Shown in pieces: positions 1 to 9,369 of a stretch of DNA of 56,039 nucleotides. How positions within the stretch are numbered: the first letter of the stretch is position 1; the number at the start of each line of letters is the position of its first letter. The notes below the pieces were generated by a model that did no database searches, had not been told where the DNA came from, and saw nothing but the letters and a program-made list of their open reading frames with translations. The DNA is from Paeniglutamicibacter psychrophenolicus (GTDB lineage: Bacteria; Actinomycetota; Actinomycetes; Actinomycetales; Micrococcaceae): assembly GCF_030812255.1 (NCBI RefSeq), contig NZ_JAUSSH010000021.1, positions 1 through 56,039 of the forward strand, written 5' to 3'. A program made the position numbers and the translations under genes.

Positions 1-110
1 CCCGGGGGCGGCCCCCCCCCCCGCCCCCCCCCGAACCCCCCCCCCCCCCCCCCCGCACCAACAACCCCGGGGGGGGCCCCCCCCCCGGGGGGGCCCCCCC
101 CCCCCCGCGG
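1..110. other. Low-complexity C/G homopolymer at the window edge
   Basis: The first ~110 bases are almost only runs of C and G, with one short interruption near 57-65. Nothing else in the window looks like this. It most likely reflects poor base calling or assembly at a contig end rather than real chromosomal sequence. No gene can be assigned to it. Confidence 0.7.
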
Positions 111-124
111 GTCTTGGTGTGTAC

Positions 125-360: not shown

Positions 361-561
361 CGCGCACAACGGGAACGGCCTTGTCGAGCGATGCGAATCC
401 TGCCTGCGCCATGGGCCGTCCCTCCTGCTTGGTGTGCTACCCGTGAGATTACCGAAGCGGCAGGTCAGGCGGGAGAGGAAGGCGGGTTTCGGGGAGGGAA
501 TTCTTGGGACGCCGCCCGGGGTGTTGGGAAAATCGAGACAGTCGCCGCTTCGCGCTTCGGG

Positions 562-1032
562 TTACGGCGCCTCTCCGGTGCGCAGGTCGATGGTGGCGAC
601 ATGGATCCCCCCGACGTAGACGTGCAGGTCCCCGGCGGCCGCCGGGGCCTCTGCGCCAAGGAGGGTGCCGGAGATCTCGAGGCGAAATCCCGGGGCACCG
701 GGCGCCGGGAAATCGAGCATCCGGTACATGCCGTCGCCGGATTCGGCTTCCGGGGCGGGGGACACGGTCAACGTGCCCAGCCGATCCAGGTAGCCCTGGT
801 CGATGCACAGCGTGAGTGGTTCGTTGATTCCTGCGATCGAGCGGATCTCGATGGCCAGCGTGGCGGGGCCGCCGGGAAGGTCGGAGCCGTGGGTGTGCAC
901 GGTGACCGCGTAGCCGCTGCCCCGGCCGGCCCCCATGCCGCCCAGCCCGTCGATCCCGGGCAGCTCCGGATCCAGCGGGGTCGAGTCGGGCAGTTCCGGT
1001 TCCTGCGCCGGAGGTCCGGGGAACGTGTCCAT
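562..1032 (-). CDS. Hypothetical protein, 156 aa
   Basis: I do not recognise this protein. The reading frame is open far upstream, but ATG at 1032 is preceded by GAGGAAG at a proper distance and begins a compositionally sensible protein. The first ~40 residues are rich in Pro, Asp, Glu and Gly and probably disordered. The rest alternates hydrophobic and polar residues (for example LHVYVGGIHVATIDLRTGE near the C-terminus), which suggests a beta-sandwich. It has no signal peptide or membrane segment. It is divergent from the regulator at 1337, with about 300 bp between them. The function is unknown. Confidence 0.6.
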   Translation of the reverse strand: MDTFPGPPAQEPELPDSTPLDPELPGIDGLGGMGAGRGSGYAVTVHTHGSDLPGGPATLAIEIRSIAGINEPLTLCIDQGYLDRLGTLTVSPAPEAESGDGMYRMLDFPAPGAPGFRLEISGTLLGAEAPAAAGDLHVYVGGIHVATIDLRTGEAP

Positions 1033-1218
1033 CGTGCTTCCTCTCGTTCCCGCCCTCGGGGGCTTCGATGCGGTTGGCGGGTGGAATCCCTCCCTGCCAC
1101 CGTCTCGCTCCGTGCCCCGGGCGTCAAGTGCCCGCGACGCCGAAAACTCGGTCCGGATTCCGTCCCGGAGTGCATGGGCCGGCGCGGTTCCGGGGGACGG
1201 AGGGATGGCGGCCTTCCC

Positions 1219-1248
1219 TTTACACGCCGCCTGTGGGTGGTGAATGCT
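1219..1248 (+). promoter_or_regulatory. Candidate promoter of the regulator at 1337
   Basis: TTTACA at 1219-1224 is followed by 18 bases and AATGCT at 1243-1248. The same TTTACAC...ATGCTGT arrangement with the same 18-base spacer precedes the paralogous regulator at 5306. The match lies in otherwise dissimilar DNA, so it is likely functional. The -35 box fits a housekeeping sigma factor; the -10 fit is only fair. A bound regulator is also possible. Confidence 0.5.
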
Positions 1249-1336
1249 GTCCCTAGTGCCGCAACGGCAACAATCCCGCCGGCCACGGACCGAGGCCGCG
1301 GGCCGGAGGGCGAATGCATGAGGGGTGTGAAGGCTT

Positions 1337-2353
1337 GTGGAAGGGATCCGCTTGCGCGTCCAAGACGCCATGCAATCGCACAACGACGGCCTGACGCAGG
1401 CGAAGGTGGCCCGGCAAATCGGCATGAGCCGCGATGCGCTCAGCCGCTCCCTGAGTGGGCAGCGGAACTTCAGCGCCACCGAGCTGGCGAAGCTTTCCAA
1501 GGTGCTCGAGGTGTCGCTGAGCTGGCTGGTCACCGGGGACCCGCGCCCCGAGGGATCCACTGGCCGGGACGGGCAGGGTGCGGGCTGGAAGCACGATTCC
1601 GTGGCGGAGACCGTGGCCTTCCCCGCCGGGGCGTATCGGGAGGTGGGACTCGGCACCGGGACGGTGCCGCAGCTCGAGCCCGGCCTGGACCCCGAGGAGG
1701 GCGCGGCGGAGGTCGCGAGGGTGCTGGATGAGGCCTTGGGCAAGGCCTTCGTGCATGACCTGCCCGCGGCCATCGAACAGGCCTATGAGATCGGGGTGTT
1801 CGTGGCCGCCGAGGGGCCGGCGTTCGACGCCCGGGCCATGCGGACCGACGAGGTCACCTACATCATGGTGCGCGGCACCGGGGCCTGGTACCAGGCGAAC
1901 CTGGTGCTGGCCCGCGAGCTGGGCGCGCTGCTGGGCAGGCGGCACGAAGGCATCGGCATCCGCGCGCAGGCCGAGGACGGCTGGGCCCTCGACTTCGCAC
2001 TGGCGCTGCTGCTGCCCGCCGCGCGGTTGCGGTCGGTCGACTGGAACCGGCAGACCCCGCGCGAGCTGGCCGGGTTCCTGTGGGAATCCGGGGCCTCGGC
2101 CAGGGCGCTGGCGCACCGGCTCGACGCACTGGGCATCGCCCGCGGCCCGGCGCTGGTGCATGCCGACGAGGGAACCTTGCAGCTGCTGGTCTGGCAGGAT
2201 CCCGAGTGCCTGAGCCACCACCGGGCCAGGGCGTACCGGGCCCCGCGGATTCCGGCGGACCTGCTTGGTGCGCACCTCTCCGGCATGCGCCGCGGCGTGG
2301 TGGACGGATCCTCGCTGGCCTGGATGCTTGACACCCCGCTGGAGGAGCTTTGA
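1337..2353 (+). CDS. HTH regulator with degenerate ImmA/IrrE-like domain (copy 1)
   Basis: This 338-aa protein opens with an XRE/lambda-repressor-type helix-turn-helix at about residues 18-66. A linker of ~70 residues follows, then a domain whose core (AYEIGVFV at 150-157, LARELGALL at 191-199) resembles ImmA/IrrE (DUF955) metallopeptidases. Those enzymes carry HExxH in the equivalent helix; here it reads R-E-L-G-A, so both zinc-binding histidines are gone and no protease activity is expected. The conserved C-terminal part (RARAYRAPRIP, SLAWMLDTPL) is nearly identical in the paralogue at 5306-6337. The start is GTG at 1337, matching the paralogue's MEQIRLRV. It probably acts as a DNA-binding sensor; its ligand is unknown. 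Confidence 0.75.
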   Translation: MEGIRLRVQDAMQSHNDGLTQAKVARQIGMSRDALSRSLSGQRNFSATELAKLSKVLEVSLSWLVTGDPRPEGSTGRDGQGAGWKHDSVAETVAFPAGAYREVGLGTGTVPQLEPGLDPEEGAAEVARVLDEALGKAFVHDLPAAIEQAYEIGVFVAAEGPAFDARAMRTDEVTYIMVRGTGAWYQANLVLARELGALLGRRHEGIGIRAQAEDGWALDFALALLLPAARLRSVDWNRQTPRELAGFLWESGASARALAHRLDALGIARGPALVHADEGTLQLLVWQDPECLSHHRARAYRAPRIPADLLGAHLSGMRRGVVDGSSLAWMLDTPLEEL

Positions 2354-2695
2354 GGGTGGAACGGCCACCAGGCCCGGCCACCGGTGGCCACTGACTGCTG
2401 CCACGTTGTTCGACGGGCCCTGCCCCGGATCGAGGCAGCCTCGGTGTCGCCGGCGTCGCACCGGAGACGCCGGTTTGGCCGCAGAATTCCAGCTACGCGT
2501 TGCCAGAAGGTTGGAAAGCGGCGGCGCGCGCAGTAGCGTGGCTAGCACGGATACGGGCGTGCAATGAGCACGGACATCGGGCGGAGCCGGTTTCGCACCC
2601 GGGCACGTAGCGCGGCGTCGAGCCACGTTCGGTCAACCGCATGTGAAGCAGAAGTGACACCGGCCCGCATCAACCCATCGGGAGGGAAACACACC

Positions 2696-2962
2696 ATGCC
2701 AAAGGACAAGACTCCGCAGATCAAGGACGACGAACTTTACGAGAAGCTGCGCGATGAGGGAAACTCCAAGCAGAAGTCCGCGCGGATCGCCAATGCAGCC
2801 GCCAAGGAAGGCCGCTCGGTGGTGGGAGCCCGCGGGGGAAAATCCGGTGGCTACGAGGACTGGACCGTTCCCGAACTCAAGGAACGGGCCAAGGAAATCG
2901 GGTTGCACGGATATTCGAAGCAGACAAAGGACCAGCTGATCGAGTCCCTGCGCAACTCGTGA
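2696..2962 (+). CDS. Small Rho-N/SAP-like protein (DUF7218 type)
   Basis: The protein has 88 aa and starts at ATG 2696, just after GGAGGGAA; upstream in-frame codons lack such a site. The N-terminal half (ELYEKLRDEGNSKQKSARIA) is the highly charged helical segment typical of a small actinobacterial family. The C-terminal ~40 residues (WTVPELKERAKEIGLHGYSK...LIESLR) form a Rho termination factor N-terminal or SAP-like helix-extended-helix fold that usually binds nucleic acid. Family members are often labelled plasmid stabilization proteins without proof. The stop is 26 bp before the next start, so the two genes are probably co-transcribed. Confidence 0.8.
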   Translation: MPKDKTPQIKDDELYEKLRDEGNSKQKSARIANAAAKEGRSVVGARGGKSGGYEDWTVPELKERAKEIGLHGYSKQTKDQLIESLRNS

Positions 2963-2988
2963 CGGCCCACCCCGGAAGGGAGAACCAC

Positions 2989-3225
2989 ATGGCACACACC
3001 AATTCCGGGCAGGAATCCGCGGCGGTGCCTCCGGAGAAACCCGCAGGGCATGAGACGCTGGATAGTTTCGATCCGTTGCGCGACGCGGAGACCCTGCTCA
3101 CCGACGAGGACACGCAGGCCGCCGCCGACCACGTCCCCCAGGAACCCGCTGTGGAAGAATCCGCCGGTCAGGACTCTGCCTCGACGAGTGGCACAGAGGA
3201 TGGGCGGCGCCAAGACCGCGGATGA
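2989..3225 (+). CDS. Small acidic hypothetical protein, 78 aa
   Basis: ATG at 2989 follows GGAAGGGA and lies 26 bp after the preceding gene, so it is probably the second gene of a two-gene unit. The protein is very acidic and rich in Glu, Asp, Ala and Ser, with no membrane segment or cysteine. It is likely disordered. Its composition resembles the acidic protein at 39411-39773, but no alignable motif was seen. A GTG at 2959 overlapping the upstream stop is an alternative start. The function is unknown. Confidence 0.55.
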   Translation: MAHTNSGQESAAVPPEKPAGHETLDSFDPLRDAETLLTDEDTQAAADHVPQEPAVEESAGQDSASTSGTEDGRRQDRG

Positions 3226-3505
3226 ACGAGGGGCCCGGCAGCAGCTGCCGTTGCATCGGCGACGGTGCACGTCGGATCCACACGCCGCCGAATAGCCGGA
3301 GCCGCGATCCCGGGAATCATGCTTCTGCCAGCGGGGCAGGGACACGGAATTCAGTCCTGTCCAGGTCCCAGCCAAAATGGTATGCAGTGGGCTTGCAGGC
3401 CATGGCGAACACCTGAAAATCGGACCGATGGCTTCTCATCGTTGTCCGTGGAACCGGGCAATCGCGCATTGAAGGTCGGGCGAGCAACCGTCCGGCGACC
3501 GGCTG

Positions 3506-4588
3506 TCATTCAACCAGGAGGGCCGCGGCATTGGTGACGACGCCCAACAGACCGCCGAAGGCGAGGCTTTCGCGCTGAAGCCGCGCACCATTGCCATCGG
3601 CGAGCATGCGACTGAGCGCCGCTTCCACTTCCTCCTTGTCTCCGCTTTCCTCCAGGGCATCGCCAATGCGCCGCAACAGGGCACCAACCATGCGTTCGGG
3701 GGATACCGACCGTCCGGTCTCGGGATCCAGCTGGTTTCCGTCCAGGCCATGTTTGGCTGCCTGCCAGGTGGCGAGGTCGAGCAATTCACTGCGCAACCCG
3801 GATTCGGGCAGAGGCTGGTGGACAGATGTTTCAACCAGTGCCCTGATGGCCAAGGCCAGCGCCACCGAATCCGCGGCCCGAAGCTGCGCATCGGCGACAC
3901 GGATCTCGACGGTTGGATAGTTGTGGGACAAGCGCGCCGCCCAGCCGATGTGGCCGGCATCCAGGACCACGTCGGAACCCAGGACCTGGGAGAGGAACTT
4001 GTAGTAGTCCTCGGGACCGGCAAAGTAAGGCTGGATTCCCTGGACGGACCACATCCTGTAGTGGATGCTGCGCCACGAGGCAAATCCTGTGTCCATGCCC
4101 CGCCAATACGGCGAATTCGCGCCGATCGCCACCAGAATGGGCAGCCATCTGCGCAACCCGTTCAACGCAAGGATCCCGGCTTCCGAGTCCGTGATAGCGA
4201 CATGCACGTGCATTCCCGAGACGTATTGCTGGCTGCTGATCCCCGGCAGGTAGCGGTGTATTTTCCGATATCGCTCAACCGGGGCGATGGTTGCCGAGCC
4301 TTCGGACATCAAGGGAGCAGCGCCCATCGAAACCGCCACCAGGTTGCTGGCTGACGCGGTGGTCGCCAGGTTTTGGCGAAACCGACGCAACGAAGCCAGC
4401 GCTTCGTGGGATGCGGAACAAACGGGTGTTGCCATTTCCACTTGGCAGTCCAGCAACTCGTGTTGTGATTCGCTGGCCCCCGCCCGGATCGACATCAGGC
4501 GCTTTCGGGTGCCCTCATCGGGAACGGCAGGGAGCCCCGAGGCTGGGTCCAACAGGAAGAATTCCTCTTCAATGCCAAAGGTGCTCAT
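3506..4588 (-). CDS. YbdK-type carboxylate-amine ligase (glutamate-cysteine ligase family 2), copy 1
   Basis: The start at 4588 gives MSTFGIEEEFFLLDP, the expected N-terminus of the GCS2/YbdK family, in which the acidic cluster contributes to metal-ATP binding. The length of 360 aa is typical. Family signatures present include HVHVAI around residue 125, the NSPYWRG motif and VEIRVADAQL. Such enzymes join an amine to a carboxylate using ATP; E. coli YbdK has weak gamma-glutamylcysteine ligase activity. Whether this copy makes a thiol is not known, because actinobacteria mainly use mycothiol. AAAGG precedes the start weakly. A second copy lies at 26327-27451. Confidence 0.85.
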   Translation of the reverse strand: MSTFGIEEEFFLLDPASGLPAVPDEGTRKRLMSIRAGASESQHELLDCQVEMATPVCSASHEALASLRRFRQNLATTASASNLVAVSMGAAPLMSEGSATIAPVERYRKIHRYLPGISSQQYVSGMHVHVAITDSEAGILALNGLRRWLPILVAIGANSPYWRGMDTGFASWRSIHYRMWSVQGIQPYFAGPEDYYKFLSQVLGSDVVLDAGHIGWAARLSHNYPTVEIRVADAQLRAADSVALALAIRALVETSVHQPLPESGLRSELLDLATWQAAKHGLDGNQLDPETGRSVSPERMVGALLRRIGDALEESGDKEEVEAALSRMLADGNGARLQRESLAFGGLLGVVTNAAALLVE

Positions 4589-4807
4589 GACCTGTGCCTT
4601 TCTGTAAAACGAAGCGTGAACCCGCGGCTCCGTCCGCATATGTGTGGCGAAGAAGTCGGCGGGAAGCCGGGGGTCTGCGTGTTCGCCGCAGCGCAATGCT
4701 CCGTCGCCCCGTCGCCTCGGTGGCGCATGTCTATTGGCTCGGGGGGACCCTGCGACCGAACGTCCATGGCGGCGGCCACCGTGGATCCAGGACATGCGCC
4801 ACGTCGA

Positions 4808-4912
4808 TCAGTGGCATCCGTGCGCTGACAGGTGCCGTTGTCCCGCACGCGGCGCCCGGAGTTCCCTACCCACCCGGAGGCCGAAGTGGTCATGATGGGA
4901 AAGGTGGTTCAT
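4808..4912 (-). CDS. Possible 34-aa His-rich leader peptide upstream of the YbdK gene
   Basis: ATG at 4912 is preceded by GGAGGAG at an ideal distance, one of the strongest ribosome-binding sites in this region. The predicted peptide begins MNHLSHHDHF, ends with a Cys-His pair and contains seven histidines. It ends 220 bp before the ligase gene on the same strand. It could be a regulatory leader or a small metal-binding peptide. Chance is also possible because it is short. The rest of 4589-5194 holds no convincing gene. Confidence 0.35.
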   Translation of the reverse strand: MNHLSHHDHFGLRVGRELRAPRAGQRHLSAHGCH

Positions 4913-5194
4913 GTTGTTCTCCTCCGTCGGGATCGTCCGCGTCAAAATGGCAACGCTGGCTGGGGCAGCAGCGCACCGGCATGTTGCTACTGTGCCGCGT
5001 CCGGAATGAACCGTCAAGGATTCCAACACCGTTGTCCCCAGAGCATTGGCCGGGACGACCCATGAAGTCCCGAGCTCCCGCCGACGACGGGCACCGATCG
5101 CCGGGGCCCGGAGCGGCAGGCGATCGGGCCCCGGCCCATCGACAGGTTCCGGTACTCCGGTTGCGGGCGTAAAGTCGCAAAAGCGACATGTGCC

Positions 5195-5224
5195 TTTACA
5201 CGGAGGGCCCAATGCGGCGATGCT
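5195..5224 (+). promoter_or_regulatory. Candidate promoter of the regulator at 5306
   Basis: TTTACA at 5195-5200, an 18-base spacer and GATGCT at 5219-5224 copy the arrangement before the paralogue at 1337. The distance to the start codon is also similar (81 versus 88 bases). A short palindrome, TCGCaaaaGCGA at 5175-5186, lies just upstream and is not shared; it could be an operator. Confidence 0.5.
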
Positions 5225-5305
5225 GTGCATGACATGTGAGCGGCGCGTACGCCAACGTGCGCCGTTCCGCCGGGAAATCATCCAAAAGCGGGGAAGGCAG
5301 GGCAG

Positions 5306-6337
5306 ATGGAACAAATACGGTTGCGGGTCATGGATGCGATCAGGTCGAACGACGGGGGATTGAACCAGGCAGCGATTGCCCGTCAGGTCGCCATGACGCA
5401 GGATGGCCTGAGTCGGTCCTTGAGTGGACAGCGGAATTTCAGTGCCAGCGAGCTGGCCGCGTTGGCAAAGATCCTGCGGGTTTCCTTGCAATGGCTGGTG
5501 ACAGGCGACCCGCGAAGCACCGGGCATGAACCGGCGGACTGGGACCGCGGGAGTCCGCCCATTGGCACGGAACGGCCGGACCGGGTGGCGGAGACCGTGG
5601 CGTTTCCGGCCGGGGCCTATCGGGAAGTTGGCATGTCCACCCGATCGGTGCCCGCCATTGCACCGGGAACGCCTCCGGACGCGGCCGCAGCCGAGGCAGC
5701 TGTCGGGCTTGAAGCGAATTCGCCGGACCCATTTATTTACGATCTTCCCGCTGCAATCGAGCACACCTACGGCATCGGGGTGTTCGTGGTGGGCGAGGGA
5801 CCTGCATTCGATGCCCGCGCCATGGCCATCAGCAAGGTGACATATGTGGTGGTGCGCGGCACAGGTGCGTGGTACCAGGCCAATCTGGTGCTGGCGCGTG
5901 AACTGGGAGAACTTGTCCAGGGCCGGCAACCGAGCATTGGACGCCGCAGGACCTCGTCAGACAGCTGGTCCACCGACTTTGCCTATTCCCTCCTGCTGCC
6001 CGAAGCGGTGCTGCGCTCCATCAACTGGAACAGGCAGACGCCCCGGGAGCTGGCTGACTTCTTGTGGGAGGCAGGTGTCTCGGCCAAGGGGCTGACCCAT
6101 CGGCTCAAATCCCTGGACATCCAGCCAGGACCGGCCTTGGTGCATGCGGACGAGGGGACCTTGCAATTGCTGGTTTGGCAGAACCCCGAATGCCTCAGCC
6201 ATCCCCGGGCCCGGGCTTACCGGGCCCCGCGCATCCCCTACAACCTGTTCAACGCGCATCTCAAGGGCATGCGCGAGGGCCGGGTGGATGGCACTTCCTT
6301 GGCTTGGATGCTGGACACGCCGCTGTCGGAACTCTAG
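5306..6337 (+). CDS. HTH regulator with degenerate ImmA/IrrE-like domain (copy 2)
   Basis: This 343-aa paralogue of the protein at 1337-2353 is collinear over its full length. The HTH (about 18-66) contains SLSGQRNFSA, identical in both copies. The degenerate metallopeptidase helix reads LARELGELV at 196-204, again without the HExxH histidines. The regions WNRQTPRELA, ALVHADEGTLQLLVWQ and YRAPRIP are shared almost unchanged, so the C-terminal half is under constraint despite lacking catalytic residues. The linker differs and has one ~5-residue insertion. ATG follows GGGGAAGG. It ends near two hairpins. The family is probably a signal-sensing repressor or activator; the ligand is unknown. Confidence 0.75.
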   Translation: MEQIRLRVMDAIRSNDGGLNQAAIARQVAMTQDGLSRSLSGQRNFSASELAALAKILRVSLQWLVTGDPRSTGHEPADWDRGSPPIGTERPDRVAETVAFPAGAYREVGMSTRSVPAIAPGTPPDAAAAEAAVGLEANSPDPFIYDLPAAIEHTYGIGVFVVGEGPAFDARAMAISKVTYVVVRGTGAWYQANLVLARELGELVQGRQPSIGRRRTSSDSWSTDFAYSLLLPEAVLRSINWNRQTPRELADFLWEAGVSAKGLTHRLKSLDIQPGPALVHADEGTLQLLVWQNPECLSHPRARAYRAPRIPYNLFNAHLKGMREGRVDGTSLAWMLDTPLSEL

Positions 6338-6601: not shown

Positions 6602-6787
6602 CTACTCGCGGTTGATGTCCTTGACTTCATCCTTGGCGCGTTCGCCGGCCTGCTTTGCCTTGGCCACGGTCTGGTCCTTCAGACCCTCGGCCTGCAACGT
6701 TTCGTTGTCGGTCGCGTCACCGGTCTTTTCCTTGATCTTGCCGGCAGTTTCCTGGGTCTTGTTGCTGATCTTGTCGCCGAGTCCCAT
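6602..6787 (-). CDS. CsbD-family stress protein
   Basis: The protein has 61 aa and starts MGLGDKISNKTQETAGK, with repeated Lys/Glu/Ala heptads, the hallmark of the CsbD family of small soluble stress proteins. AGGAGGAACC precedes the ATG at a good distance. CsbD of Bacillus belongs to the SigB general stress regulon; the biochemical role is unknown. Here it lies downstream of a membrane protein gene with a hairpin between them, and ends at a bidirectional terminator. Stress induction is likely, but no specific promoter was identified. Confidence 0.9.
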   Translation of the reverse strand: MGLGDKISNKTQETAGKIKEKTGDATDNETLQAEGLKDQTVAKAKQAGERAKDEVKDINRE

Positions 6788-6954: not shown

Positions 6955-7545
6955 CTAGATGCTTCTGTCGATGCGGCGGTGGTATCGCATACCGGCATGA
7001 CCGCCCAGGACCGCGGCAACCAACGGGATTACCAAGGCAATGACGAGCACTATCCAGCCCAACAACCCCATGTTCCATTGTTGCGGAACCAATGGGCTGC
7101 CGTTGAGCTGGCGCCATGCGTCGAAGTTGATGTCTGGAACCATGGTCAGGGCAGCCACAACGATTGCGGCAACTATCGCCCAGACCCACACTGCCACGCC
7201 CTGACGGCCACCATGGAAGCGGGCCATGCGACCTGCCACGTAACCGCCGCAGAAGTAGGCGATTAGCAGCACCAGGACCAAGGCTGCAGCGGAAATCCAC
7301 GCTGCCGTGTCCGGGTTGCGTGCCATGTTCTCGGCGGCGGACCCCAAGTTGGTCTTGGTGGCAAATCCGACGCCGGCGCCAAACGCGGTGAGAAGTGCGG
7401 TGAGCAGCACGCTCATCCCCATGGCAACGACCCAGCCGAAGAACGTGCTTCCGACCTTGACGCCGCCGAATTCCCGGCTCTCGCGGGAGAGTCGTTCATG
7501 GCTGCGGTAATCGGCCGTGCTTGATCCGGAATCTGTGGTTTCCAA
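6955..7545 (-). CDS. Four-TM membrane protein, uncharacterized
   Basis: The protein has ~196 aa with about four hydrophobic segments (roughly residues 35-60, 80-102, 115-135 and 158-180) and a short charged N-terminus. A glycine-rich FCGGYVAGRMARFHGG segment follows the second helix and resembles YrzE/TIGR04086-like small membrane proteins, but I cannot name the family with certainty. TTG at 7545 is chosen as start because GAAAGAGG lies seven bases upstream; a GTG at 7596 would add 17 residues. It sits among stress genes (csbD downstream, PRC-barrel genes upstream). Confidence 0.65.
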   Translation of the reverse strand: METTDSGSSTADYRSHERLSRESREFGGVKVGSTFFGWVVAMGMSVLLTALLTAFGAGVGFATKTNLGSAAENMARNPDTAAWISAAALVLVLLIAYFCGGYVAGRMARFHGGRQGVAVWVWAIVAAIVVAALTMVPDINFDAWRQLNGSPLVPQQWNMGLLGWIVLVIALVIPLVAAVLGGHAGMRYHRRIDRSI

Positions 7546-7623
7546 CGAACAACCTCTTTCAAAATTGAAAACGGACAGTGGCTTGTGGCGGCGCACCCGC
7601 CCTTTGCTGCGGCGGCCGCGTTC

Positions 7624-8283
7624 TTAGGGGTCCATCCGGTGCAGGGGGCCGGGGCCCTTCGCCTCGGGTCCCTCTTCGGTCGCCGTGCGCGGTCCCTCTG
7701 CCAATTGCTGTTCTTCACCTCTGGCCTTCGCGTTCCGGGCCTTGTCTTCGGCTGGTTGAAGGTCTGCGTCACCGGGTGAACCGGGATCTGACGTGGGGCC
7801 GGGGCCGGGCACGGATTCCTCGCGGCGGGCCGAAGCTGCGGCATCGTGCCGGCGAATGCGGGAGGTCCTTGGCACTTGGCTATCACGAACCGGATCCGGG
7901 TGCCCTGCCGGGTTCCGCCGATCCGACACTGATTCCTCGGGGTCCGGAATGCGCGACTGGCCAAGGCCTGCCTGCGAGTAGTAGTCAAAAAGCCGGTCTT
8001 CGTCGTCGGGGCTGAGATGGCCACTTGGGTCGATCTCGGGAGCGTCCTTGACAAAGTGCTTGGTGAATTTCACGTACAGATTGCCCTTGGTGATTTCCGC
8101 ATCCGAGAGCGGTACGAAGTTCTCCTTGGAGCCGAACAGCCCGGTGTTGACGGTGGCAAAGTGCGGCAGATCGGTTCCATCATCCAGGTAGATCTGACCG
8201 AGCGTGCCAATCTTCTCTCCGTCGGAACCAAACACGCTCGTCTTGGATTCCAGCAAGGGCTTGAAGTCTTCGTAGTTCAACAT
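7624..8283 (-). CDS. PRC-barrel domain protein, copy 1 (long C-terminal tail)
   Basis: MLNYEDFKPLLESKTSVFGSDGEKIGTLGQIYLDD opens a PRC-barrel fold covering about residues 1-85, as in photosynthetic-reaction-centre H subunits and RimM. The remaining ~130 residues are charged, rich in Pro, Glu and Arg, and probably disordered. AAGGAAAGG precedes the ATG at 8283. An in-frame ATG at 8442, itself preceded by GGAAGGAGGCC, would add 53 residues. A paralogue lacking the tail lies at 8856-9191. Related actinobacterial proteins are stress-associated, with no defined biochemical role. Confidence 0.75.
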   Translation of the reverse strand: MLNYEDFKPLLESKTSVFGSDGEKIGTLGQIYLDDGTDLPHFATVNTGLFGSKENFVPLSDAEITKGNLYVKFTKHFVKDAPEIDPSGHLSPDDEDRLFDYYSQAGLGQSRIPDPEESVSDRRNPAGHPDPVRDSQVPRTSRIRRHDAAASARREESVPGPGPTSDPGSPGDADLQPAEDKARNAKARGEEQQLAEGPRTATEEGPEAKGPGPLHRMDP

Positions 8284-8855
8284 GGTGTTTTTCCTTTCCT
8301 TGCAGGCATCGGAGGAGTTCCACGTCGGGTCCGGCATCTGGCCGGTACTCCCACTGGCGTTTCCATGGGAAAAGCAACTGCCGGACCCGCCTGGCCAGTC
8401 GGCTGGTCTTCGGCAGCCGTCGGAGGTACCCGAGTCATCCATGGCCTCCTTCCGATCCTGGAACCTCGGCGCGGTACTGTGGCGCCAATGTCGATTCGGC
8501 CGATTGTTCCTGACAATAGCCAAACACCGCCGCCAAGCCGGTTCAAGGAAGTGTCAAGCCGTTGGGGACAAGCTGCCGCATGGGGAATAAAAGTATCGCG
8601 AAAATACCAAGACTCGTTGCCGCAACTCGGCGCCGCAACTCTGCGCCGCATGCCTTTGCTCCCGCATGTTTGAGCAAGTAGGGCCCGCTGGTCCGGCGCC
8701 GCGGGAGCCGACCGCAGGAACCATGCTGGCCGCCCCCAACCGATGCAGCCAGAGGTGGCCGAGGCATCGAAAGCGGTTCCGGCAGTCGTCGGGGAAGCCT
8801 GTGCGGTCGCGCCGTGCCCAGCTGGAATGCTGGTGCTTCCGTGCGCGGGATGAGC
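8284..8855. other. Intergenic region between PRC-barrel paralogues
   Basis: About 570 bp without an independent gene on either strand. It holds the in-frame upstream extension of the long PRC-barrel gene (8284-8442), an AT-rich patch around 8580-8620 that may carry promoter elements, and a short near-repeat of GCCGCAACTC around 8629-8650. No clear terminator was found. Confidence 0.5.
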
Positions 8856-9191
8856 CTACGAACCGATATCGGGATCCATGGCCGCATAATACTCATCGAG
8901 CATGTATTTGGCCTCCTCGCCAAGCTCCGCGGCGGGATCGATGTTCGGCGCGTGCTTAATGACGTCCTTGGCATAGCGGACCTGAAGATGTCCGTCGGTG
9001 AACACTGCGCCGTTGAGTGAGACCAGCGCTTCCTCCGAGCCGAACAAGCCCAGATGGACGCTGACGAAGTCGGCGTCCCCGGTGCGCACGTCCATGAAAA
9101 TGTTTCCCAGCGTGCCGACCTTTTCCCGTGAGGGCCCATAGACCGTGCTCTTGGCCTTCTTCAAAGCGTTCAGGTAGCCGTGGCCCAGCAT
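8856..9191 (-). CDS. PRC-barrel domain protein, copy 2 (compact)
   Basis: The protein has 111 aa. MLGHGYLNALKKAKSTVYGPSREKVGTLGNIFMDV aligns position by position with the start of the copy at 7624-8283, which fixes the start at 9191; AAGGA lies upstream. Shared features include VGTLG/IGTLG, the V-T/H-GLFGS segment, V-L-N/S-GA and KHAPNIDP / KDAPEIDP. It then ends with an acidic ~25-residue tail instead of the long extension. The pair is a tandem duplication that diverged by tail length. Confidence 0.75.
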   Translation of the reverse strand: MLGHGYLNALKKAKSTVYGPSREKVGTLGNIFMDVRTGDADFVSVHLGLFGSEEALVSLNGAVFTDGHLQVRYAKDVIKHAPNIDPAAELGEEAKYMLDEYYAAMDPDIGS

Positions 9192-9369
9192 GACGTTGTC
9201 CTTACCGGATGGTCCCTCCGGGTGCGGTTCACCAACGGACCGGCTCGGCTGCCGACCGTAGCGATGGTTCCCGAGTAGGTACGACGTTGGCAGGCAAAGG
9301 CGCCGGGCATCCATAACAAGCAAAGCACCGCGCTCCGTCCCGTTCAAGGACAATGCATGCCGAATGCCG

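What the first reader, a model, noticed from the sequence alone, without database searches (positions are those of the whole stretch)
1337..6337. Paralogous HTH regulators with a lost ImmA/IrrE active site and a conserved promoter
Two full-length paralogues (338 and 343 aa) combine an XRE HTH with a domain resembling ImmA/IrrE peptidases. In both, the HExxH helix reads LAREL-G-A/E, lacking the zinc-binding histidines, while the C-terminal half is strongly conserved. Outside the genes the only clear similarity I found is TTTACA-N18-(A/G)ATGCTGT at matching distance. This suggests a regulator pair that kept an old protease fold as a sensor and shares or cross-regulates a promoter.
Basis: partly seen in the sequence, partly recalled or inferred. 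Interest (0 to 1): 0.72.

Follow-up and report, generated by a model that had tools for sequence, protein, structure and literature searches.

The report
Stress-gene regulator with dead protease domain
Two sister DNA-binding proteins in a soil bacterium descend from a protein-cutting enzyme that has lost its zinc site; the evidence suggests that they now switch nearby stress genes by another means, and relatives preserve steps of that change.

Summary
The two genes are real paralogues (65% identical): an XRE helix-turn-helix fused to an IrrE/ImmA-type (M78) domain. The fold is supported by profile comparison (hhalign 99.1%) and a confident model whose PDB matches include CapP, PprI, IrrE and PrpR. 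All 16 proteins of the genus (Paeniglutamicibacter) have lost both zinc histidines (RELG-x); a sister protein reads RELGH; relatives examined outside keep HExxH and the third ligand. Selection is purifying.

The shared promoter is real: CTTTACA-N16/17-SRATGCTG lies about 110 bases before 13 of 16 genus genes (one with a mismatch). Its spacing suggests a core promoter; it does not show cross-regulation.

New: HExxH relatives carry a palindrome, TTGGGAWWWTCCCAA, in an apparently leaderless promoter before their own gene (20 of 20), once per genome in 14 of 14. In the dead lineage this self-site decays; variants (TTGGGAWWWTCGCGA) precede PRC-barrel genes (8 of 10), including window 8596-8610.

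Best reading: a self-controlled protease-repressor became a stress regulator with a dead protease as sensor. Binding, ligand and expression are untested.

The parts
1337..2353 (+). Regulator copy A: XRE HTH (about residues 15-68) + variable linker + degenerate M78 domain + conserved C-terminal part, 338 aa
1907..1927 (+). Dead active-site helix of copy A, LARELGA (HExxH -> RELGA)
5306..6337 (+). Regulator copy B, same architecture, 343 aa
5891..5911 (+). Dead active-site helix of copy B, LARELGE (HExxH -> RELGE)
1218..1250 (+). Promoter-like element of copy A: CTTTACA (-35 TTTACA 1219-1224), -10-like AATGCT 1243-1248
   Evidence: promoter role inferred
5194..5226 (+). Promoter-like element of copy B: CTTTACA (-35 TTTACA 5195-5200), -10-like GATGCT 5219-5224
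   Evidence: promoter role inferred
5270..5284 (+). Supposed remnant of the ancestral self-operator before copy B (CCGGGAAATCATCCA, where HExxH relatives have TTGGGAWWWTCCCAA); none seen before copy A
   Evidence: comparison with relatives; inference
8596..8610 (-). Operator-like site TTGGTATTTTCGCGA, 312 bases before the PRC-barrel gene; similar sites before most of its orthologues
7624..8283 (-). PRC-barrel gene (PRC1), proposed target
524..538 (+). Second operator-like site TTGGGAAAATCGAGA, behind the 562-1032 gene; in G001, G003, G007 and G008 a similar (1-3 mismatch) site lies 0.4-1.1 kb before an AcrB-type pump gene
   Evidence: Pfam run on the G003 pump only
2696..2962 (+). DUF7218/Rho_N gene, neighbour kept in part of the genus
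3506..4588 (-). GCS2 (glutamate-cysteine ligase family 2) gene, neighbour kept in part of the genus
6602..6787 (-). CsbD-like stress protein gene (name recalled from the sequence; not run against Pfam), neighbour kept in part of the genus
6955..7551 (-). Membrane protein gene, neighbour kept in part of the genus
8856..9194 (-). Second PRC-barrel-like gene (PRC2; named by its similarity to PRC1), neighbour kept in part of the genus

Best explanation
The pair are transcription regulators descended from single-chain XRE-M78 metallopeptidases. Step 1 (shown by sequence): ancestor-like relatives keep HExxH plus the third ligand and carry one perfect palindrome, TTGGGAWWWTCCCAA, that overlaps the -35 region of an apparently leaderless promoter of their own gene. 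Inferred: the HTH binds it and represses its own synthesis until the peptidase inactivates the repressor, as in DdrO/IrrE or ImmR/ImmA but in one chain. Step 2 (shown): in the branch leading to Paeniglutamicibacter the first zinc histidine became Arg while the second was still present (sister protein, RELGH), then the second was lost too; the third ligand is Arg in the sister and mostly Asp in the genus. The catalytic Glu and its helix stayed. The self-operator decayed, an upstream promoter-like element (CTTTACA-N17/18-RATGCT) is present, and the gene duplicated into A and B. Step 3 (shown as sequence, function inferred): variants of the operator sit before a PRC-barrel stress gene and a few others, often close to the regulator gene. 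Inferred: the protein binds these sites, and a ligand or partner in the former active-site pocket (Arg in place of His) changes DNA binding allosterically, without proteolysis, so that it controls a local stress regulon.
For: Fold: hhalign of nine dead domains against eight distant M78 proteins 99.1%, E 1.8e-18; of nine dead members tested in Pfam, one (L014) passes the cutoff (27.1 against 22 bits) and six more match weakly; AF2 with 41 rows pLDDT 86.2, pTM 0.73; Foldseek hits CapP 7t5t (prob 1.00, E 4.2e-3), PprI 8sln, IrrE 3dti, PrpR 6cyj/6d2s. Loss: 16 of 16 genus proteins have Arg for the first His and no second His; G065 RELGH. With active-site letters masked, G065 + genus form one group 100/99 and the three states need two changes, the least possible. 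Constraint: dN/dS 0.06-0.24 over whole genes in 9 pairs. Operator: perfect palindrome before 20 of 20 full-length HExxH relatives (19, 1); the one relative without an HTH (G054) lacks it; exactly one copy per genome in 14 of 14 such genomes, none in the backward control in all 30. Regulon: 30 hits of the variant in 15 genus genomes against 4 in the control, 22 of 30 between genes by a crude caller, 12 of 30 within 20 kb of a regulator gene; 8 of 10 PRC1-type genes have a site within 500 bases upstream (at most 2 mismatches; seven in one orientation, the eighth symmetric) against 1 of 19 other PRC genes; two of the eight lie in G002 away from its regulator (405 kb; another contig).
Against: No binding, ligand or expression data exist. 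The genus sites are degenerate and asymmetric, so binding by the present HTH is inferred. Sites before PRC1 end 158-400 bases from the start codon. 8 of 30 hits lie inside genes, and an AT-rich pattern favours intergenic places anyway. Of the 8 of 10 PRC1 genes, G010 and G014 are near-copies and the second G002 site is weak (shuffle P 0.03); G004 has only a 3-mismatch version and one G002 copy has none. The MscL site of G010 is not found in G014. The two regulator-free genomes have no hit, but one (G005) is 88% complete and the other (G006) has two control hits, and several carriers have only one or two hits. The full neighbour set occurs in 5 of 12 other carriers only. G065 is one genome on a long branch. 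No Foldseek hit reaches E 0.001, and the model's alignment contains intact M78 proteins, so it is not independent of the homology claim. An acidic residue remains at the third-ligand position in 12 of 16.
Confidence: 0.6

Rival explanations
1. The dead M78 domain is only a structural or dimerisation module. The protein is a constitutive regulator whose level, set by the CTTTACA promoter, is the only input; there is no ligand.
For: No ligand motif is known; the promoter-like element is nearly private to these genes and conserved. Other XRE regulators work without a sensor domain (established knowledge).
Against: The former active-site helix is well conserved: W189, N193, R198, E199, L200, G201 invariant among 8 genus proteins; W189, N193, E199, L200 and G201 also in the relatives aligned; Arg and Glu invariant in 16 of 16. 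Mere scaffolding does not obviously need an Arg at the zinc position.
Confidence: 0.2
2. The operator-like sites before PRC1 and others in the genus belong to another regulator. A and B bind elsewhere, for instance at their CTTTACA promoters (autoregulation and cross-regulation).
For: The CTTTACA element is the only non-coding similarity seen between A and B and is nearly confined to these genes; the ancestral self-site is absent before A and nearly gone before B.
Against: The PRC1 sites share length, left half and AT centre with the palindrome that outside the genus occurs once per genome, in 14 of 15 before the HTH-M78 gene; 12 of 30 hits lie within 20 kb of a regulator; the two genomes without regulator have none (weak, see above). 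The CTTTACA element is not palindromic, lies at sigma-70 spacing and tolerates a one-base change of spacer (G001a).
Confidence: 0.15
3. The proteins bind a metal or still have peptidase activity through a changed site.
For: The catalytic Glu (E199) is invariant, and the third-ligand position is acidic in 12 of 16 (Asp 10, Glu 2).
Against: Both histidines are gone in 16 of 16: the first is Arg, the second E, A, V or Y.
Confidence: 0.05

Closest known systems
PrpR / RamB (ScfR family), structures 6CYJ, 6D2S
   Same: XRE HTH joined to an IrrE-like fold in which the HExxH residues are not conserved; the pocket binds coenzyme A; a transcription factor, not a protease (PMC6765138, passages seen); among the Foldseek hits
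   Different: PrpR was solved as residues 81-486, so it is longer than 338-343 aa; it holds a [4Fe4S] cluster by a C-X4-C motif region, while the 16 genus proteins have one or two Cys and no C-X4-C; Pfam and NCBIfam report no ScfR match for the window proteins
IrrE/PprI with DdrO, ImmA with ImmR, CapP with CapH (M78 metallopeptidase and XRE repressor pairs)
   Same: Fold of the C-terminal part and XRE repressor half
   Different: Those are separate protease and repressor with a working HExxH (partly recalled; passages); here both halves are one chain and the zinc histidines are gone
Fused HTH-COG2856 proteins (e.g. Rv2515c) described by Makarova et al. 2009 (PMC2701414, passages seen)
   Same: Both domains in one chain; the relatives with HExxH found here fit that description
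   Different: Those were predicted to be Zn proteases linked to toxin-antitoxin loci; here the protease is dead and the neighbours are mostly stress genes

Membership tests
XRE (HTH_3) transcription regulators | HTH_3 domain above Pfam cutoff | tested here: met
   PF01381: 41.0 bits (A) and 25.3 bits (B), cutoff 23
M78 / IrrE-ImmA peptidase fold | Sequence profile or fold of the M78 domain | tested here: met
   hhalign 99.1%; 13 of 15 family members match PF06114 at E up to 1, the two window proteins do not; model resembles CapP and IrrE at modest E-values
M78 metallopeptidases (as enzymes) | HExxH plus third Glu ligand | tested here: not met
   RELGA and RELGE; third position Asp in both window copies
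ScfR family (PrpR/RamB) | ScfR C-terminal domain (recalled as PF09856/DUF2083) | tested here: not met
   no such match in Pfam or NCBIfam at E up to 1
ScfR family (PrpR/RamB) | [4Fe4S] cluster cysteines (C-X4-C motif region) | tested here: not met
   no C-X4-C in any of the 16 genus proteins
ScfR family (PrpR/RamB) | acyl-CoA binding | not testable with these tools
   needs purified protein

The most novel reading that the evidence does not exclude
A self-contained protease-repressor switch is seen turning into an allosteric stress regulator in steps that living genomes still show: HELGH with a single self-operator; RELGH with a weakened self-site plus a perfect site before a neighbouring stress operon; RELG-x with the self-site decayed or lost, a new promoter, duplication, and a changed asymmetric operator before stress genes, some far from the regulator. 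Loss of proteolysis and gain of a regulon would then be linked events.
Probability: 0.48. Interest if true: 0.78.

Novelty: new variant of a known kind. Interest (0 to 1): 0.62.

Why it matters
Dead proteases used as sensors are known (PrpR), but how a protease switch becomes a ligand sensor is seldom visible. Here an intermediate, the ancestral operator and the derived operator can all be read from genomes, which makes the order of events testable at the bench. The palindrome TTGGGAWWWTCCCAA, found once per genome before this type of gene in 14 of 14 genomes, also gives a ready-made probe for XRE-M78 fusions of this bacterial order.

Tried and rejected
Structure from the eight close sequences alone was poor (pLDDT 43.2, pTM 0.27) and was not used; adding 33 viral-contig M78 proteins (41 rows) gave pLDDT 86.2. 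A first viral-contig scan confirmed no relative. The VIA aligner library was not available. The CTTTACA element: exact matches in the 15 stretches examined lie only before the regulator genes; at two mismatches four other places appear against one in the control, not examined further. That element as an XRE operator was not preferred, because it is not palindromic and its spacer varies by one base. A mechanism with a toxin partner was not supported: the neighbours identified are stress and metabolic genes. MscL as a target was set aside: site in G010, not in G014. A search for more genomes of the genus of the intermediate G065 returned that one genome only. Papers: eight library searches were answered; their listings showed no paper on these Paeniglutamicibacter genes or on an XRE-M78 operator (one search held 12,071 papers, of which 10 were listed). 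PMC12565409 has no word beginning with TTGGGA (find). I saw passages only of PMC10370305, PMC6765138, PMC12565409 and PMC2701414, and the others as listings.
Full report
What is there. The two ORFs are real and at the stated places. They are 65% identical, have an XRE HTH (PF01381), and are under purifying selection: whole-gene dN/dS is 0.06-0.24 in the nine pairs tested, and 0.00-0.25 in the M78-like part. The window is one contig of a genome (G000) whose genus includes Paeniglutamicibacter: five named contigs, three titled Paeniglutamicibacter and two Arthrobacter sp. (L022-L026), have the same lengths as contigs of G003, G010, G008, G004 and G009 of that genus. Of 15 genomes of the genus, 13 hold the gene and three (G000, G001, G003) hold two copies, 16 proteins in all (two weak further M78 matches in G007 and G011 are other proteins). 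Trees place most of them in clades A and B that split inside the genus, with G002, G011 and G012 basal at moderate support, so the pair is an old duplication with later losses.

The dead protease. Pfam does not see the domain in the two window proteins, but 13 of 15 members of a family alignment match Peptidase_M78 at E up to 1. Of the nine dead members in that set one, L014, passes Pfam's cutoff by itself (27.1 against 22 bits) and six match below it. A profile of nine dead domains against eight distant M78 proteins gives 99.1% and E 1.8e-18 over 200 columns. The AF2 model from 41 rows (pLDDT 86.2, pTM 0.73) finds CapP first in the PDB, and further down PprI, IrrE and PrpR, all with modest E-values (best 4.2e-3, none at or below 0.001). 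Many of the other hits are HTH domains alone.

When the zinc site was lost. In all 16 genus proteins the first His is Arg, the Glu is kept, and the second His is E (9), A (5), V or Y; the third-ligand position is Asp in 10, Glu in 2 (G009, G013), other in 4. G065, a genome of another genus of the same family, reads RELGH with Arg at the third position. The nearest other family relatives (G027, G330, G165, G335, G223, G387) keep all three ligands. Of 17 order-level loci, three of them seen before, 16 keep HExxH by a pattern search, and the seventeenth (G508) reads HEYCH. With the active-site letters masked, 36 proteins give G065 + genus at 100/99, and the three states need two changes, the least possible. 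G065 sits on a long branch and is one genome (one search found no second of its genus), so the order of losses rests on it alone.

The shared promoter. CTTTACA-N16/17-[CG]RATGCTG lies 109-118 bases before the start codon of 13 of 16 genus genes (G012 with one mismatch); G001b, G009 and G013 lack it. In eight whole genomes the exact pattern has nine matches, all before these genes, and one in the control; G012 has none, since its element ends in T. With one mismatch in six genomes there are nine matches, eight of them there. Spacing between TTTACA and RATGCT is 18 bases, 17 in G001a. I read it as a core promoter of sigma-70 type with a poor -10. It shows shared ancestry and constraint, but not cross-regulation.

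The likely operator. In the upstream regions of the relatives I saw a palindrome, TTGGGAWWWTCCCAA, that begins 34-37 bases before the start codon. Of 22 loci scored it is perfect in 19, all with HExxH, and has one mismatch in G065; the script missed G508, where one search found it perfect; G054, whose protein lacks the HTH, has none. In 18 of the 19 a TAnnnT hexamer lies 6 or 7 bases before a start codon (G630 has none); in 17 of these TTGGGA sits 16-19 bases upstream of it (in G587 the script picked a TAnnnT only 11 bases away; a second, TAGAAT, lies further down). So the promoter looks leaderless, with the operator over its -35. Searched in 30 genomes, the palindrome occurs once in each of the 15 genomes outside the genus and in G001, and in no other genus genome; the backward control has none. 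In 14 of the 15 it is the copy before the HTH-M78 gene. In G065 the perfect copy is instead about 56 bases before a gene with a weak, sub-cutoff YtxH match, followed by a transglycosylase-associated gene (Pfam, above cutoff), next to the regulator (gene starts by a crude caller).

In Paeniglutamicibacter the self-site has decayed. The left half TTGGGAAA survives before G008, G010, G014, G011 and G012; G000b, G003b and G001a have changed versions; G002 and clade A have none. G001b instead has a variant site 150 bases upstream. A variant, TTGGGAWWWTCGCGA with at most one mismatch, has 24 hits in nine genus genomes (control 1) and 6 in six more (control 3). The two genomes without the regulator have none, but G005 is 88% complete and G006 alone has two control hits, so this is weak support. 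By a crude gene caller 22 of 30 are between genes; 12 of 30 lie within 20 kb of a regulator gene (compare). The clearest target is the PRC-barrel gene PRC1 (window 7624-8283): 8 of 10 PRC1-type genes have a site with at most two mismatches within 500 bases upstream, seven in the same orientation and one symmetric, against 1 of 19 other PRC genes. Two of the eight (G010, G014) are near-copies; G004 has a 3-mismatch version and one of three G002 copies has none. In G002 two such genes lie away from its regulator, one 405 kb away and one, a weak site, on another contig. The site is an island of similarity in an otherwise diverged upstream region. A small gene followed by a GCS2 paralogue has a site in G008, G007 and G004.

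Neighbourhood. DUF7218/Rho_N, GCS2, CsbD-like, a membrane protein and PRC1 all lie near the regulator in the window and in 5 of 12 other carriers (G001, G003, G008, G010, G014); G004 has all but GCS2 in the stretch read; G007, G009, G011, G012 and G013 have parts; G002, and the outside genomes G065 and G330, have none in the stretches read.

Mechanism. I propose that the ancestor was a one-chain repressor-protease that controlled itself, and that the present proteins are repressors or activators of stress genes whose dead protease pocket senses a ligand or partner. PrpR is the precedent: an IrrE-like fold without the HExxH residues that binds coenzyme A (PMC6765138, passages). Shown here: homology, active-site loss, constraint, promoter and operator conservation. 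Inferred: DNA binding by A and B, the direction of control, the ligand, and that loss of proteolysis and gain of targets are causally linked.

Noticed in passing
window 1-115: Runs of C and G at the contig start look like an assembly artefact; the gene order beyond is not visible there.
   Followed up: no
window 1257-1269: TGCCGCAACGGCA, a short inverted repeat just behind the -10 of copy A, is conserved in the four closest A-type genes; a possible A-specific operator.
   Followed up: no
window 562-1032 (-): A 156-aa protein conserved beside the four closest A-type copies has no Pfam match.
   Followed up: partly
L073 8343-9204 (G065): Perfect palindrome before a weakly YtxH-like and a transglycosylase-associated gene next to the RELGH regulator.
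   Followed up: yes
L215, L226, L233: A small protein with CxxC stretches and a GCS2 paralogue are neighbours, with an operator-like site 96-141 bases upstream in G008, G007 and G004; the small protein (L215 and L226 tested) has no Pfam match.
   Followed up: partly
L214 and L237 position 1501: Operator-like TTGGGGATATCGCGA between a divergent membrane protein and a glycosyltransferase-like gene (names recalled) in G000 and G004.
   Followed up: no
L003 (G000 contig C5): Own-genome protein joining a similar XRE HTH to a TetR-like domain (reading from sequence), like the PDB entry 4ich by its HTH.
   Followed up: no
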